Source of the DNA: Prevotella sp.
GTDB lineage: Bacteria > Bacteroidota > Bacteroidia > Bacteroidales > Bacteroidaceae
Length of the DNA stretch: 38,037 bases
Direction of reading: 5' to 3'
Assembly: GCA_017467535.1 (NCBI GenBank)
Contig: JAFUST010000001.1
Location: 1 to 38,037 of the forward strand
This document shows, in pieces, positions 2,091 to 16,762 of the stretch. Each line of letters opens with the position of its first letter. Position 1 is the first letter of the stretch. The position numbers and the translations under genes were made by a program. Below the pieces are notes generated by a model. It saw nothing but the letters and a program-made list of their open reading frames with translations, had not been told where the DNA came from and searched no databases.

Positions 2091-3725
2091 TCACCGCTTC
2101 ATGTCGGTGGGGCTGTGGCCGAACTCCTCCTTGAAGCACTTGGTGAAGTAACTGGGGGCGGTGAAGCCTACGGCATAGGCCACCTCGGAGATGGTCTTGT
2201 CGGTGGTGAGCAGCAACTGGTAGCCGCGGTTCAGACGGGCCGTGCGCAGCAGTTCGACGGGCGACGAGTCGGTGACGGACTTCACCTTGCGGTAGAGTTG
2301 CACGCGGCTCAGGTTCATCTCTGCCGCCAGGTCCTCTACGCTCAGGTCGCTCTCCGACAGGCGCTTCTCCACCACCTCCTTGAAGCGGGTGATGAAAAGG
2401 CCGCCAACAGACTCTCCCCCGTCCCCTCCCTGTAAGGGAGGGGAGTAGTCACTTTCTCCATCTTCAGGACTATCCACTCCCCTCCCTTCAGGGAGGGGTT
2501 GGGGGAGAGTCTGCTGAGTGAGAGTCTGCTGTGTCTCCACATTCCACAGGTTGTTCACCACACGCTCTCGCTGCAGGTTCATCTTGCCGCGGTGATAGAG
2601 GTAGAAGAAGAAGATGGTGAGCAGCAGCAGGATGATGACCACCAGGGACAGGACGTTGATGATATGCTGGGTGTCCAACTGCTGCAGATAGTTGTCGGCA
2701 CGCTGGTGCAGGCGGTCCAGATAGTCTGACTGGCGGGCCATCTCCTCACTCTGCATCTGCAGCGCATGGGCGTTCTGGCGGGTGACCAGAGCCGACATGA
2801 GACGTATCTCCTTGTCGAAGGGCCGTCCGTCAAGTATGTCGACGGCCACCTGGAGCAGACGGTCGCCATGCGTGGGATAGATATAAGTGGCATCGAGGAT
2901 GGAGTCCTCCACCAGACGGATGCCCCCACCCTCGCCGGGCAGGCCGTCGATGCCGCAATAAAGTGATGAGTGCAAAGTGGAGAGTGAAGAATTTGCTGCC
3001 GCTTTTCGGGCGCCCATCGCCATGCGGTCGTTCTGGCCGAAGACGAAGTCGATGGGGCCCACATCGGTGCCCACGCTGTCCAGCCACTGGCGGGTGGCCT
3101 CGTAGCCGCTCTCCTCGGTCCAGTCGCCCTGCAGCGTGGCCACCAGACGGATGTCGGGCCAGGCCTTCAGCGCATCGGCGACGCCCAGGTGACGCTCGAT
3201 GGCGGGCGACGAGCCCTGCAGGCCCATCACCTCGAGCACCTGTCCGCGGCCCTGCAATCGCTGGGCCACATAGTCGCCCATCGTGCGGCCCATCTCGTAG
3301 TTGTCAGCACTGATGAAGGCGGTGTATTTCTCTGAACTGGTCTTACGCTCGAAGACGATGACGGGTATGCCGCTGTCGTAGGCGCGGTCGATGGCGGGCG
3401 AGATGGTCTGCACCTGATTGGGGGCCACGATGAGCAGGTCGATGCCCGTGCCCAGGAGGCTGTCTATCTGCTGCACCTGGCGCTCGTCGCTGTCGTAGGC
3501 GGCGGCAAAGCGCAGTTCCACGTCGTCCTTGTTGCAGTAGGCGCCCATGCGCAGTTCGGAGTTCTGCTTCTCGCGCCAGATGTCGGCCGAGCACTGCGAC
3601 ACGCCGATGACATACTTGGCCTGGCGCTGTGAGCACGACAGGCACAGGAGGACGACGAGCAGCACACACAGGCAGGCAGCCGGTCGTGCCGAAGAGAGAT
3701 ACGTCTGAGGATATTTCATGACCAT
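2091..3725 (-). CDS. Membrane-anchored sugar-binding/AraC hybrid regulator without kinase domain
   Basis: 544 residues. An N-terminal lipoprotein-like or signal-anchor segment (ending LLCLSCS) leads into a LacI/RbsB-type periplasmic binding domain (about residues 35-300: IGVSQCSADIWREKQN, then the IDLLIVAPNQ and IPVIVFER strands). A coiled coil (about 315-350) and one membrane span (NVLSLVVIILLLLTIFFFYL) follow, then a short linker, then an AraC-type double helix-turn-helix at the C-terminus (DLAAEMNLSRVQLYRKV and TISEVAYAVGFTAPSYFTKCF). In the usual Bacteroidota hybrid two-component proteins, histidine kinase and receiver domains sit between membrane and DNA-binding parts; here they are absent. 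The linker instead carries a 102-bp palindromic repeat in frame. It follows the GH3 gene by 19 bp, so it probably senses a sugar and controls that gene. The start may be either of two nearby ATGs (3725 or 3719). Confidence 0.9.
   Translation of the reverse strand: MVMKYPQTYLSSARPAACLCVLLVVLLCLSCSQRQAKYVIGVSQCSADIWREKQNSELRMGAYCNKDDVELRFAAAYDSDERQVQQIDSLLGTGIDLLIVAPNQVQTISPAIDRAYDSGIPVIVFERKTSSEKYTAFISADNYEMGRTMGDYVAQRLQGRGQVLEVMGLQGSSPAIERHLGVADALKAWPDIRLVATLQGDWTEESGYEATRQWLDSVGTDVGPIDFVFGQNDRMAMGARKAAANSSLSTLHSSLYCGIDGLPGEGGGIRLVEDSILDATYIYPTHGDRLLQVAVDILDGRPFDKEIRLMSALVTRQNAHALQMQSEEMARQSDYLDRLHQRADNYLQQLDTQHIINVLSLVVIILLLLTIFFFYLYHRGKMNLQRERVVNNLWNVETQQTLTQQTLPQPLPEGRGVDSPEDGESDYSPPLQGGDGGESVGGLFITRFKEVVEKRLSESDLSVEDLAAEMNLSRVQLYRKVKSVTDSSPVELLRTARLNRGYQLLLTTDKTISEVAYAVGFTAPSYFTKCFKEEFGHSPTDMKR
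2410..2511. repeat. 102-bp nested palindromic repeat inserted in-frame in the regulator gene (family P1)
   Basis: Two arms (2410-2450 and 2468-2511) are near-perfect inverted copies that begin with GACTCTCCCCC on both outer edges, and each arm is itself a hairpin (CCCTCCCTG facing AGGGAGGG). The element is exactly 34 codons long and adds a Pro/Gly-rich linker (PLPEGRG ... PPLQGGDGGE) to the host protein without breaking the frame. It has the shape of a MITE-like element and resembles the P2 palindromes near waaA in layout, though not in exact sequence. Confidence 0.85.
2962..2989. repeat. 28-bp block of four heptamers inside the regulator gene
   Basis: Four consecutive imperfect 7-bp units of the form AGTGNNN run from 2962 to 2989. 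They encode the serine-rich insert NSSLSTLHSSLY in the binding domain of the hybrid regulator. The same unit type recurs in the GH3 gene and near 12527. Confidence 0.75.
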
Positions 3726-12554: not shown

Positions 12555-12569
12555 TAAAAATATGGAAAC

Positions 12570-12670
12570 AAAAAAGACGTGGGAGTTTGTATCTCTCCGC
12601 GCCTATCCCTGTTGTCAGGCTCTAGCATTGCCCCTTCATAAGGATAAGCAACGTAGAGCCTGCCCACGTC
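12570..12670 (-). ncRNA. Structured leader RNA or attenuator ending in a U-run
   Basis: On the minus strand GACGTGGG and CCCACGTC close a stem of 8 bp. Directly inside, CAGGCTCT pairs with AGAGCCTG (8 bp), and this encloses further TTGC/GCAA and CCTT/AAGG stems. A run TTTTTTG follows the outer stem, as in an intrinsic terminator. Immediately upstream a GTCAGG/CCTGAC stem would use the same GAC bases as the outer stem, so the two could be mutually exclusive, as in an attenuator. I cannot match it to a known riboswitch class. Confidence 0.55.
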
Positions 12671-13003
12671 AGGCGATATACATATACACACTACCACCTG
12701 ACACACTCCCCCTCCGCTTTGGGCTATATATGCTAAGATGGTACGCCTCCTCGCGGAGGGTACACCTTATTATATATAAGGGGAAATATCAGGCGCAGGG
12801 TGTGATATAATCATCAACCCAAACGTAGACGTCTCTGTTGCATCACCGCTGTATGAAGATTCAAACTTGCTAGATTTGACAAACACAGACAGGTAACGTC
12901 AAGAAAACGTCTTTCCGAGACTGGCCGTACAACTGGCCTGAGGCCTCGTTCCACAAAATATATTTTGCAAACCCACCCACGCAAGGGCAGGCTATTTCGG
13001 GTG

Positions 13004-13034
13004 CAAAGATAAACATAATTTTCCAATCACCAAA
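13004..13034 (-). promoter_or_regulatory. Consensus Bacteroidota promoter facing the surface-protein leader
   Basis: On the minus strand TTTG (13031-13034), a 19-base spacer and TATCTTTG (13004-13011) match the Bacteroidota -33/-7 consensus exactly. Confidence 0.72.
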
Positions 13035-13089
13035 GAATTTTAAGAAAAAATGTGCGATTTTTTATTCTTTGGAAAGAAATTGGCGAGAA

Positions 13090-13265: not shown

Positions 13266-13616
13266 AGGACGAAATCAGAGGAAGACGTCGGAGAGTATCT
13301 TGTCGGTGGCACCGGCCTGACCGTTGACGTAGGCGGCAGCCTGCTGGCCGGCCTGCTGCAGGAAGGGGGCATCGGCAGAGAAGCGGTCCATGAGGCGCTG
13401 GAAGTCCTCATAGCAGGTGATCTCGAAGCCGCCGCCCTGGGCCTTCAGGCCCTGAGCCTCCTGGAACTTCTGGTTCTCCGGGCCGAAGATGACGGGTACG
13501 CCCCAGACGGCTGCCTCGAGGGTGTTGTGGATGCCCACGCCGAAGCCGCCGCCCACGTAGGCCACGGTGGCATAGCGGTAGATGCTGGAGAGCAGGGCGA
13601 AGCAGTCGATGATGAA

Positions 13617-13652
13617 AGCCCCCCCTACTGCCCCCTAGGGGGCTTATTTAGA
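13617..13652. repeat. P2 palindrome, single copy carrying the waaA stop codons
   Basis: AGCCCCCCCTACTG followed by CCCCCTAGGGGGC is the same unit as at 13836, but with one base change that makes TAG and a neighbouring TAA in the waaA frame. Compared with the readable copy, GAA became TAA and TCG became TAG. Confidence 0.8.
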
Positions 13653-13835
13653 CTGTAGGGTGGTGTAGCGGGTGACCTGACGGTCGTCCAGTAGTTTCTC
13701 TATCTGCTGGAGGTGGTCTTCGCCGATGACGTGGGGGGCGATGATCAGGCGCCACTCCGGGTGCTCACGGAAATAGCGGATGAAGATTTCTTCGTCAGGC
13801 GGCCACGACGAGCCGGCCACAAACACTTTGGGACA

Positions 13836-13926
13836 AGCCCCCCCTACTGCCCCCGAGGGGGCTTCTGTAGTATTGCTGTTGAGAAACAGAACTATCGTGT
13901 CCCCCTCGGGGGACGAAAGGGGGGCC
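13836..13926. repeat. 91-bp P2 inverted-repeat pair inside waaA, read in-frame
   Basis: Two arms (left from 13836, right ending at 13926) are inverted copies starting with a run of Cs on the outer edges, each with an internal CCCCCGAGGGGG-type hairpin. A small CTGTT/AACAG stem lies at the centre. In the waaA frame it encodes the insert SSPEGDTIVLF ... APSGAVGGA. It looks like a nuclease-less (MITE-like) form of the element at 14559-15046. Confidence 0.85.
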
Positions 13927-14558
13927 ACTTCTTTTACCTGCAGCACGCGATCGAAGCGGGTGTCGCCGGTGACGGTGGCGTTGGTCAGGCCGATGGTGGC
14001 GAGCAACTGGCGGCTCTGCTCGTTCTGCACGTAGAAGTGGGTGAAGCAGCGCAGCACGCGGCCATACTGGTGGCCGTACCAGCGGAAGAAGACCTGGCCA
14101 GGACGGAAGATGCTACTGACGCTATAGACGGGCACGCCGCGGTGCTTCAGGATATGCAGATAGTTGTACCAGAACTCGTACTTGATGAAGAAGGCCATCT
14201 CGGGGCGGATGGTGCGCAGGAAGCGGCGGGCGTTGCGGATGGTGTCGAGCGGCAGGTAGCAGATGATGTCGGCCCCGGCATAGTTCTTGCGCACCTCGTA
14301 GCCGGAGGGCGAGAAGAAGGTGAGCAGGATCTTCAGTTCGGGGTGGTCGCGCTTGATCTGCTCCATGAGGGGGCGGCCCTGCTCAAACTCGCCGAGCGAG
14401 GCGGCGTGGAACCAGACGTAGCGGGCCGAGGGGTCTACTTTCTCGCGGAGCACGTGGAAGGCGTCGCGCTCGCCGCGCCACATCTTGCGTACCTTCTCGT
14501 TGAAGAGGCTGTAGACGGCCACGCCCAGCAGGTAGAGATAGATAATCAGGTTGTACAT

Positions 14559-14598
14559 GGAGCCCCCCCTTCTGCCCCCGAGGGGGCTACTATAGTTT
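14559..14598. repeat. P2 palindrome, left arm of the DUF559 unit
   Basis: The arm starts one base upstream of the waaA ATG (14556-14558) and so replaces its normal upstream region. The CCCCCGAGGGGG core can fold into a hairpin in the RNA just before the waaA start. Confidence 0.82.
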
Positions 14599-14616
14599 TG
14601 TTGGTTGTATTATTCA

Positions 14617-14985
14617 TCACAGATTCGCTTCTATGGTCTGCAATACTTTATTAACATCATTAAACAACTCTTCGTTGGTGAATCTCACCACCCTGTAGCC
14701 TCTGTCCTCCAGCCACTCCTGCCGCAATGCATCTGAGACTTGCTGATGTGGCATCTGATGGTATCCCCCATCCAGTTCGACAACCAGTTTACTCGGCAGA
14801 CAAGCAAAGTCTACTATATACCCCCCAATGATATGCTGGCGTTTGAATGATACTCCCAGACCCTTAGCCTTCAGATAGTTCCACAGCAACTCTTCTGCCT
14901 CGGAAGGATGATTTCGGTTGTAGCGCGCATAATCCCGAAGGAGGGTATAAAGAGTTTTGTCTGCGGTCTGGTAGTCGTATGCCAT
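14617..14985 (-). CDS. DUF559 family endonuclease-like protein
   Basis: 122 residues. The family belongs to the PD-(D/E)XK/Vsr-like nuclease group. Visible marks are the N-terminal helix region ARYNRNHPSEAEELLWNYLK, the strand LGVSFKRQHIIGGYIVDFAC (with the conserved D of the active site), the following KLVVELDGGYHQ (the E-x-D/H part) and DRGYRVVRFTNEEL near the end. Full length for the family. It starts 10 bases after the gltX stop and ends 19 bases before the left palindrome arm. Such proteins are assumed to cut DNA, but a specific role for this family is not established to my knowledge. Its bracketing by palindromes makes a role in their movement an attractive guess. Confidence 0.88.
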   Translation of the reverse strand: MAYDYQTADKTLYTLLRDYARYNRNHPSEAEELLWNYLKAKGLGVSFKRQHIIGGYIVDFACLPSKLVVELDGGYHQMPHQQVSDALRQEWLEDRGYRVVRFTNEELFNDVNKVLQTIEANL

Positions 14986-14995
14986 TCTTTGACAT

Positions 14996-16603
14996 TTAAT
15001 TGGCAGCAGGCATCGTAGCCCCCTCGGGGGCCGAAGGGGGGGCTCCTAATACTTCTATGGCTTTCCTCGTACGGCGGATGACCTCTTCCTTGCCCAGGAA
15101 GGCGGAGAGTTCGTACATGTCGGGGCCTTGGCCGGTGCCTACGAGGGCGATGCGCCAGGCGTTCCAGGGCTTGATGCCGGTCTGCTCCACCCAGGGGTCG
15201 ACGACGGCCTTCTGGCCTTCCACGCTCCAGTCGGTGATGGTCTCCAGCACGGCGGCCAACTGACGCATCTGGTCGGCCGTCTGCTCGTTCCAGTTCTTGC
15301 GGATGAACTTGTCACCCTCGCGGTCGAAGTCTGTGGGGGCCACGAAGAAGAACTTGGTGAGGGGCCACAGGTCGCTGGGGAAAGAGATGTTGCGCTTCTT
15401 CTTGTTGCCCAGGCTGTCGGTATACTCGATGACCTTGGTCTTCATCATCCTGACCACCTCGGCCTCCTGCTCGGCGGTGGCCGTGATGCCGTTCTCGCGG
15501 AGCACCTTGTCGAAAGCGGGGCACCAGTCGGCCTCGGGACGACGCAAGAGGTACTGGTGGTTGAACCAGGCGGCTTTCACATAGTCGAACTTGGCGCCGG
15601 CCTTCGAGCACTTGGTGAGGTCGAAGAGGCTGACCATCTCGTCGAGCGACATGAGTTCCTGGTCGTTGCCGGGACTCCAGCCAAGCAAGGCCAGGAAGTT
15701 AATCACGGCTTCGGGCAGGTAGCCCTGCTCGCGATAGCCCGAGGAGACCTCGCCCGTCTTGGGGTCGTGCCACTCCAGGGGGAACACGGGGAAGCCCAGT
15801 TTGTCGCCGTCGCGCTTCGAGAGTTTGCCGTTGCCTACGGGCTTCAGCAGCAGGGGCAGATGGGCGAAGCGGGGCATGGTGTCCTGCCAGCCAAAGGCCT
15901 GGTAGAGCATGACGTGGAGCGGTGCGGAGGGCAACCACTCTTCGCCACGGATGACATGAGTGATCTCCATCAGGTGGTCGTCGACGATGTTGGCCAGGTG
16001 GTAAGTGGGCAGTTCGTCCTTACGCTTGTAGAGCACCTTGTCGTCGCAGATCTCGCTCTTGACGCGCACCTCACCACGAATCAGGTCGTCGACCAGCACC
16101 TCCTGCCCGGGTTCCACGCGGAAGCGCACCACCCAGGTGTCGGTCTCCTCGATGAGCCGCTGCACCTCGTCGGCGGGCAACGTCAGCGAGTTGCGCATCT
16201 GCTGGCGGGTGTGGCAGTCGTACTGGAAGTTCTCTATCTCCCGGCGCTTCTGCTCCAGTTCCTCGGGCGTGTCGAAGGCCACGTAGGCCTTGCCCGTGTC
16301 CAGGAGTTGCTGCACATATTTCTTATAGATGTCGCGACGCTCGCTCTGGCGATAGGGGCCGTAGTTGCCGCCGAAGGACACGCCCTCGTCGAACTGGATG
16401 CCCAGCCAGCGGAAGGACTCGATGATGTAGTCCTCGGCACCGGGCACGAAGCGGGTGGTGTCGGTATCCTCGATGCGGAACACGAGTTGGCCGCCGTGCT
16501 GGCGGGCAAAAAGGTAGTTGTACAGGGCGGTGCGCACGCCGCCGATATGGAGGGGTCCCGTGGGACTGGGTGCAAAGCGCACCCTCACTTTTCTCTCTGT
16601 CAT
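14996..16603 (-). CDS. gltX: Glutamate--tRNA ligase
   Basis: 535 residues from the ATG at 16603; the frame is open far upstream, but that part is antisense to pgpH and starts before the promoter. The class I synthetase charges tRNA-Glu in the cytoplasm. The HIGH motif appears as [20 protein letters not shown] and the KMSKS-like motif as [21 protein letters not shown] and the anticodon-binding helical C-terminal half ([20 protein letters not shown]) are also present. The last 16 residues ([16 protein letters not shown]) do not belong to the family: they are encoded by the right arm of the palindromic element, so the original C-terminus has been replaced or extended. The enzyme should still work, as the tail is outside the conserved domains. 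Confidence 0.96.
15016..15046. repeat. P2 palindrome, right arm, forming the gltX 3' end
   Basis: On the minus strand it reads GGAGCCCCCCCTTCGG followed by CCCCCGAGGGGGC, inverted relative to the arm at 14559. It is translated as [11 protein letters not shown] at the end of GltX. Confidence 0.82.
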
Positions 16604-16660: not shown

Positions 16661-16716
16661 TTTATTTGGGTTTTTCCGAGCGGGAGTGCCTTCGAATACA
16701 GTCAAAGGTACGAAAT

Positions 16717-16744
16717 AATTCTTAATTCTTGATTCATTATCCAT
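16717..16744. repeat. 28-bp heptamer block between divergent promoters
   Basis: Four units (AATTCTT twice, GATTCAT, TATCCAT) lie between the gltX and pgpH promoters, overlapping the expected -33 position of the pgpH promoter. Confidence 0.6.
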
Positions 16745-16754
16745 AATTATTTCG

Positions 16755-16762
16755 TATCTTTG
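16755..16762 (+). promoter_or_regulatory. pgpH -7 element
   Basis: TATCTTTG matches TAnnTTTG 22 bases before the ATG at 16784. It shows that the longer open frame starting at 16760 cannot be the true start. Confidence 0.65.

What the first reader, a model, noticed from the sequence alone, without database searches (positions are those of the whole stretch)
14559..15046. A DUF559 nuclease gene bracketed by nested palindromes: possible new nuclease-bearing mobile unit
Two GC-rich arms, inverted relative to each other and both starting GGAGCCCCCCC at the outer edge, enclose one complete DUF559 gene and nothing else. Each arm is itself a hairpin. The unit is wedged between the last codons of gltX and the start codon of waaA, and the same arms without the nuclease occur inside waaA. 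Autonomous and nuclease-less forms side by side resemble a transposon with its MITEs, or REP sequences with a RAYT enzyme, but the enzyme here is a Vsr/PD-(D/E)XK type. The layout is seen directly; mobilisation by DUF559 is inference.
Basis: partly seen in the sequence, partly recalled or inferred. Interest (0 to 1): 0.82.

Follow-up and report, generated by a model that had tools for sequence, protein, structure and literature searches.

The report
Nuclease gene paired with palindromic repeats
A small DNA-cutting-enzyme gene sits between two mirror-image hairpin repeats, the same pairing recurs in many bacteria, and each enzyme branch tends to go with its own repeat type, so this enzyme family probably helps to spread a widespread class of bacterial DNA repeats whose mover was unknown.

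Summary
A DUF559 gene (14617-14985, -) lies between inverted 35-nt palindromic arms. Of 112 DUF559 loci examined in 100 genomes of the genus, 92 have an arm pair (17 of 648 shifted controls); so do 59 of 80 named loci from many phyla (10 of 413 controls). Arm type tracks the enzyme tree, also after dropping homologous positions. Genomes with a strong DUF559 match carry a median of 44 hairpins of one pattern, those without 1; Y1 transposases (the RAYT fold) show no such link. At the gltX-waaA junction relatives show empty, single-arm, nuclease-free-pair and nuclease-bearing forms; a syntenic sister species lacks the unit. Same-genome enzymes are at most 71% identical, so a multiplying transposon is not seen; the system resembles REPIN/RAYT with an unrelated Vsr/EDxHD-like nuclease. 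Cleavage and copying are inferred. Against: 20 of 112 loci lack arms, and some hairpin-rich genomes lack a detected cognate enzyme. Paper searches listed nothing linking DUF559 to such repeats. New variant of a known kind.

The parts
14559..14593 (+). left palindromic arm (type A), hairpin core 14574-14587
14617..14985 (-). DUF559 (Vsr/EDxHD-like) nuclease gene, 122 aa
   Evidence: PF04480, E 4.3e-32; E31, D59, E70, D72, H76, D85 near-invariant
15012..15046 (-). right palindromic arm (type A), inverted partner, hairpin core 15018-15031; the gltX frame reads through it
13836..13926 (.). nuclease-less inverted arm pair (REPIN-like) in frame inside waaA; cores 13849-13862 and 13900-13913
   Evidence: relatives compared
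13617..13643 (.). single type A arm at which the waaA open frame ends
2409..2512 (.). nuclease-less pair of type C hairpins (2424-2442, 2480-2497), shared with sister species G392; a DUF559 gene with type C arms is elsewhere in the genome (L003)
13644..14558 (-). waaA (KDO transferase) N-terminal open frame, host gene at the left edge
15047..16603 (-). gltX (glutamyl-tRNA synthetase), host gene at the right edge; its frame runs on to 14996

Best explanation
The unit is a REPIN-like pair of inverted palindromes with a single DUF559 nuclease gene inside. Each DUF559 clade is the cognate enzyme of one palindrome type. It recognises that palindrome, as duplex or as an extruded or single-stranded hairpin, and cuts or nicks at it; repair of the break copies arm pairs to new sites. 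Nuclease-less pairs therefore spread in trans, while the nuclease copy mostly stays single and is gained or lost at its locus. Shown: bracketing, enzyme-arm co-variation, association with hairpin number, presence and absence at one junction. Inferred: that the enzyme is active, that it binds and cuts the palindrome, and that this drives the copying.
For: Bracketing: 92 of 112 loci in the genus against 17 of 648 shifted windows; 17 of the 30 best-scoring phylum loci against 3 of 168; 59 of 80 named loci against 10 of 413. Within-locus matching: in 71 of 92 loci no other locus's arm matches better than the own partner, median score 26.5 within and 8 between (partly built in, because the arms were picked as the best-matching pair). 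Co-variation: arm state (tail out, in, unclear, none) needs 23 changes on the enzyme tree against 33 shuffled, 0 of 200 as low; Spearman 0.37 after dropping 104 pairs at homologous positions, highest of 999 permutations 0.18. Type-specific number: type A hairpins at least 5 in 5 of 5 genomes with the A-clade enzyme and 5 of 95 without; type D at least 3 in 4 of 4 and 4 of 96 (thresholds set after seeing the counts). Overall number: 55 genomes with a DUF559 match under 1e-15 have a median of 44 hairpins, 45 without a median of 1 (p 1.6e-13); 40 against 1 after taking off two per DUF559 match. Strong Y1_Tnp matches show no link (p 0.99). Phylum: 45 of 80 genera with the enzyme against 4 of 60 without; within-family permutation p 6e-4. 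Acidic and histidine residues near-invariant in 105 sequences; profile reaches 3r3p, a mobile intron protein, at E 1.4e-5.
Against: 20 of 112, 13 of 30 and 21 of 80 loci lack an arm pair by my test; of six plasmid-collection records opened, one reached the cut-off of 13. Five of ten genomes rich in type A hairpins lack a detected A-clade enzyme, and the window's own genome holds 48 type D hairpins with no D-clade enzyme found, though it is 79% complete. The crossed test of type D hairpins against the A-clade enzyme is also borderline (p 0.05). Eight of 45 genus genomes without the enzyme have 10 or more hairpins and 8 of 55 with it have fewer. With two hairpins taken off per DUF559 match the phylum test weakens to 24 of 126 against 13 of 170, p 0.003. 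The genus p-values are not corrected for phylogeny. E. coli ycjD is not bracketed: both neighbouring repeats lie downstream. No target-site duplication or clean excision was seen.
Confidence: 0.65

Rival explanations
1. DUF559 is a homing-endonuclease-like parasite of REPINs: it cuts REPINs without an insert and copies its own gene between their arms, while something else spreads the REPINs.
For: Its relative 3r3p is a mobile intron protein; PMC9403480 places a DUF559 gene in the EDxHD homing family (one passage); the gene lies in the loop of an arm pair; same-genome copies are diverged.
Against: Hairpins are scarce where DUF559 is absent and Y1_Tnp does not explain them; arm orientation and sequence follow the enzyme clade, which a parasite of independently moved REPINs would not need.
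Confidence: 0.16
2. It is an autonomous transposon: DUF559 acts as transposase on the outer arms and moves the whole unit; nuclease-less pairs are its MITEs.
For: 114 pairs of enzymes at least 60% identical sit at positions without detected flank homology and have alike arms (median similarity 0.50 against 0.22 for pairs under 45%); unit present or absent at one junction.
Against: No same-genome pair above 71% identity in 105 pairs (draft assemblies could hide identical copies); no target-site duplication seen at the few sites compared; I know of no transposase of this fold (recalled).
Confidence: 0.1
3. Arms are terminators or insulators around a host repair or defence nuclease (Vsr-like mismatch repair); the co-occurrence reflects regulation or tolerance, not mobility.
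For: Caulobacter VsrA is a DUF559 protein hypothesised to be a VSP repair enzyme (PMC12907096, passages).
Against: Hairpins also occur by tens to hundreds per genome, far more than two per DUF559 gene, and inside coding genes; arm type follows the enzyme clade.
Confidence: 0.06
4. The palindromes are ordinary RAYT-moved REPs and DUF559 is a bystander.
For: 64 of 100 genus genomes hold some Y1_Tnp match.
Against: No association of strong Y1_Tnp matches with hairpin number (p 0.99); the window's genome has only a 24-bit Y1 fragment yet 58 hairpins of one pattern.
Confidence: 0.03

Closest known systems
REP/REPIN with RAYT (TnpA-REP, Y1 HUH tyrosine transposase)
   Same: Inverted palindrome pairs, several types per genome each with its own small enzyme, enzyme in single diverged copies, many enzyme-less pairs (PMC3116915, passages).
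   Different: The enzyme is an unrelated Vsr/PD-(D/E)XK-type nuclease; pairs also lie in frame inside genes; types B and C lack the GTAG tag.
EDxHD / Vsr-like homing endonucleases (I-Bth0305I; that 3r3p is this protein is recalled)
   Same: Detectable sequence relation (3r3p, E 1.4e-5).
   Different: No intron or intein seen; no room for the extra DNA-binding region described for that family (PMC3943268, passages) in a 122-aa protein; flanked by palindromes.
CGTC-tagged REPs and Rickettsia palindromic elements
   Same: Palindromes without a known dedicated transposase; some lie in frame inside genes (PMC3733652, abstract and passages).
   Different: No CGTC-type arm was seen next to DUF559 genes; that search used short motifs recalled from memory on the loci then held, so this stays open.
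MITEs with an autonomous partner
   Same: Nuclease-bearing and nuclease-less forms share arms.
   Different: No target-site duplication seen and no multiplying autonomous copy.

Membership tests
DUF559 (PF04480) | Profile match over the curated cut-off | tested here: met
   110.7 bits against 20.6
REPIN | Two inverted REP palindromes with a short spacer, in many copies per genome | tested here: met
   58 hairpins of one pattern in the own genome, reversed control 0; many of the listed places lie in close pairs
RAYT system | Partner enzyme is a Y1 HUH tyrosine transposase | tested here: not met
   Partner is PF04480; Y1_Tnp presence not linked to hairpin number
RAYT system | Enzyme clade specific to palindrome type | tested here: met
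   with exceptions: 5 of 10 type A-rich and 4 of 8 type D-rich genomes lack a detected cognate enzyme
GTAG-tagged REP | Unpaired GTAG at the palindrome foot | tested here: inconclusive
   Type A arms read GTAG on the inner side but its last G is in the stem; types B and C lack it, read by eye
EDxHD homing endonuclease | Catalytic-domain homology | tested here: met
   3r3p, E 1.4e-5 by profile; family assignment of DUF559 in PMC9403480 (one passage)
EDxHD homing endonuclease | Cleaves a cognate insert-less site and is copied into it | not testable with these tools
   needs biochemistry or crosses
DNA transposon with MITEs | Target-site duplication or precise ends | tested here: inconclusive
   None seen at the four sites aligned with G392; flanks vary
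DNA transposon with MITEs | Recent multiplication of the autonomous copy in a genome | tested here: not met
   105 same-genome pairs, highest identity 71%; most genomes are drafts

The most novel reading that the evidence does not exclude
DUF559 proteins are a second, independent class of REP-associated enzymes, spanning many phyla, that drive the spread of very common GC-rich palindromes (the CCCTCTCCC..GGGAGAGGG plus GGGGTGAGGG type, and the types seen here), perhaps including the repeat next to E. coli ycjD. They would do so by a nuclease-and-repair route rather than by tyrosine transposition.
Probability: 0.48. Interest if true: 0.93.

Novelty: new variant of a known kind. Interest (0 to 1): 0.84.

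Why it matters
Many bacterial palindromic repeats have no known mover; [quoted passage not shown] This work names a candidate mover for another widespread palindrome class, from an enzyme family still called DUF, and gives a prediction testable in laboratory E. coli through ycjD. It would mean that REP-like genome parasitism evolved twice with unrelated enzymes, and it suggests one source of in-frame palindromic inserts in bacterial proteins.

Tried and rejected
CGTC link: looked for DUF559 genes flanked by CGTC-type repeats; a grep with short motifs recalled from memory gave 4 matches in the loci then held (2 in L280, 2 in L297), none next to the gene. Not pursued. E. coli as a clean empty-site experiment: a stretch covering sapF-ycjD-fabI is matched over at least 80% in 3333 of 5426 genomes, but the two genomes without it that I opened have RND pump genes there instead, so no clean empty site. 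Annotated plasmid-collection records: of six opened, one (L297) reached the arm cut-off. Target-site duplications: four own-genome sites aligned with G392; flanks too changed to fix the ends. Rfam: no match in the window at gathering scores. Phages: 6 of 50,697 records hold a relative. PDB rows at E 0.06 to 0.4 (PvuRts1I, toxin B-subunits) were taken as chance or remote and not followed. The phylum association is partly circular because each bracketed gene brings two hairpins; the corrected version is reported.

Dropped rows: of 132 DUF559 matches, 112 were examined; 20 fragments or weak rows (58.7 bits or less) were not fetched. The tree left out 3 of the 112 (domain score under 60). In one search, 3 of 30 junctions (L071, L074, L086) could not be classed. 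In one search only the 30 best loci were taken of many more matches.

Full report
Observation. The window holds one complete DUF559 gene (14617-14985, - strand, 122 aa; PF04480 E 4.3e-32) between inverted arms 14559-14593 and 15012-15046, 35 nt and 94% complementary. Each arm contains its own hairpin core; the core pattern gives 9 strand matches at 5 places in the window against 0.57 expected. The unit lies between waaA and gltX; the gltX frame runs on through the right arm. A nuclease-less pair sits in frame inside waaA, and the waaA open frame ends at a single arm.

The same genome. The genome (2.39 Mb, 79% complete) has two more DUF559 genes. One reads in frame into a gmk-like sequence, the other lies between two phenylacetate-CoA-ligase-like genes; these names are my reading of the ORFs. 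Both are bracketed by inverted arms, each of another type. The genome has 58 hairpins of the pattern CCCTCC-N0-8-GGAGGG and none of the reversed pattern, and 48 of a further type, D.

Bracketing is general. One search gave 132 DUF559 matches in 62 of 100 genus genomes; I examined 112. Arm pairs scoring 13 or more flank 92 of 112; 17 of 648 windows shifted within the same loci reach that score. Among the 30 best phylum loci 17 do, against 3 of 168 controls. Among 80 named loci 59 do, against 10 of 413; those with arms include Pseudomonadota, Chloroflexota, Thermodesulfobacteriota, Bacteroidota, Nitrospirota and Caldisericota. Of six plasmid-collection records opened later, one did. Several outside the genus lie in frame inside long genes, read by eye as restriction-modification subunits and a methionine synthase.

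Arms belong to their locus and to their enzyme. In 71 of 92 loci no other locus's arm matches better than the own partner; the median score is 26.5 within loci and 8 between. This is partly built in, since the arms were chosen as the best-matching pair; the shifted controls are the fair test. On a tree of 109 enzymes the arm state (tail out 74, in 14, unclear 4, none 17) needs 23 changes against 33 shuffled, 0 of 200 as low; the five type A loci form one group with SH-aLRT 88; many forks are weakly supported. Protein identity and arm similarity correlate at 0.37 after removing 104 pairs at homologous positions, highest of 999 permutations 0.18.

Copy number follows the enzyme. Genomes with a DUF559 match under 1e-15 (55) have a median of 44 hairpins (pattern), those without (45) a median of 1, p 1.6e-13; in genomes at least 90% complete 65.5 (28) against 1 (24). 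Taking off two per DUF559 match leaves 40 against 1, p 2e-11. Exceptions: 8 of 45 without the enzyme have 10 or more, 8 of 55 with it have fewer than 10. Strong Y1_Tnp matches (23 genomes) show nothing, p 0.99. By type, with thresholds set after seeing the counts: A hairpins many in 5 of 5 genomes with the A-clade enzyme and 5 of 95 without; D in 4 of 4 and 4 of 96; crossed tests p 0.35 and 0.05. In the phylum 45 of 80 genera with the enzyme and 4 of 60 without have 3 or more hairpins of one pattern; within-family permutation p 6e-4. The corrected count is weaker, 24 of 126 genomes against 13 of 170, p 0.003. Phylogeny is not corrected for in the genus test.

Gain and loss. At the gltX-waaA junction of 30 loci (window included) 5 have the nuclease-bearing unit, confirmed by a DUF559 profile; 1 has a nuclease-less pair, 3 a single type A arm, 1 another repeat type, 15 a short spacer of 5-76 nt, 2 other longer inserts without DUF559, 3 could not be classed. 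The sister species G392, syntenic with the window (pieces 88-99% identical), lacks the unit and has a 45-nt spacer. It has a type C-like arm in the waaA loop where the window has a type A pair. One type A arm of the own genome is absent there, one type C pair lies where G392 has other sequence, one type C pair is shared. No target-site duplication was evident.

No multiplying transposon seen. The most alike of 105 same-genome enzyme pairs share 71%, the median is 47%; most of these genomes are drafts, in which near-identical copies can be lost. RAYTs are described as single-copy and apparently unable to move themselves (PMC3116915, passages).

The enzyme. E31, D59, E70, D72, H76 and D85 are kept in 102 to 105 of 105 sequences. 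A profile reaches 3hrl, an endonuclease-like protein, at 2e-34 and 3r3p, a mobile intron protein, at 1.4e-5. PMC9403480 puts a DUF559 gene in the EDxHD homing family (one passage), and PMC12907096 describes a Caulobacter DUF559 protein as Vsr-like (passages). The fold was not predicted.

Mechanism. Most likely the enzyme recognises and cuts its cognate palindrome, and repair of the break copies arm pairs elsewhere, so that nuclease-less pairs spread in trans. The cutting and copying steps are inference.

E. coli. ycjD, between sapF and fabI, is annotated as DUF559; a query over that stretch is covered to at least 80% in 3333 of 5426 genomes. A repeat of the same style next to it has a median of 19 places in the 5375 genomes that have any; I recall it as box C, which no call confirms. 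ycjD is not bracketed.

Print. Papers holding DUF559 (14) and PF04480 or COG2852 (5), and REP, REPIN and related searches (of which the larger ones list only their top rows), showed no link between DUF559 and palindromic repeats. I saw listings and starts of abstracts, and passages of six papers: PMC12907096, PMC9403480, PMC3733652, PMC12306157, PMC3943268, PMC3116915. The library lacks most subscription papers.

Noticed in passing
L293 2480-3062; L301 1878-2231 (E. coli sapF-ycjD-fabI): E. coli ycjD is a DUF559 gene beside GC-rich palindromic repeats; one of them has a median of 19 places per E. coli genome.
   Followed up: partly
window 13275-14558: waaA is split at a single type A arm (13617-13643) into a 304-aa frame and a downstream remainder; whether the gene still works is unclear.
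   Followed up: no
L168, L169, L171, L175, L177, L178, L189: DUF559 domains sit in frame inside long genes (read by eye as restriction-modification subunits and a methionine synthase), with arm-like sequence translated on either side.
   Followed up: partly
own genome G000, e.g. C2:2158-2262, C3:10366-10477: 48 type D hairpins (CCCCCTAANTTAGGGGG) but no D-clade enzyme found in this 79% complete genome.
   Followed up: partly
window 12563-13061: A stretch of about 500 nt matches parts of three other G392 contigs at 72-78% identity (L323, L327, L334), perhaps another dispersed repeat.
   Followed up: no
window 16703-16762: 18-nt inverted repeat CAAAGGTACGAAATAATT, 94% complementary, 24 nt apart, upstream of gltX.
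   Followed up: no
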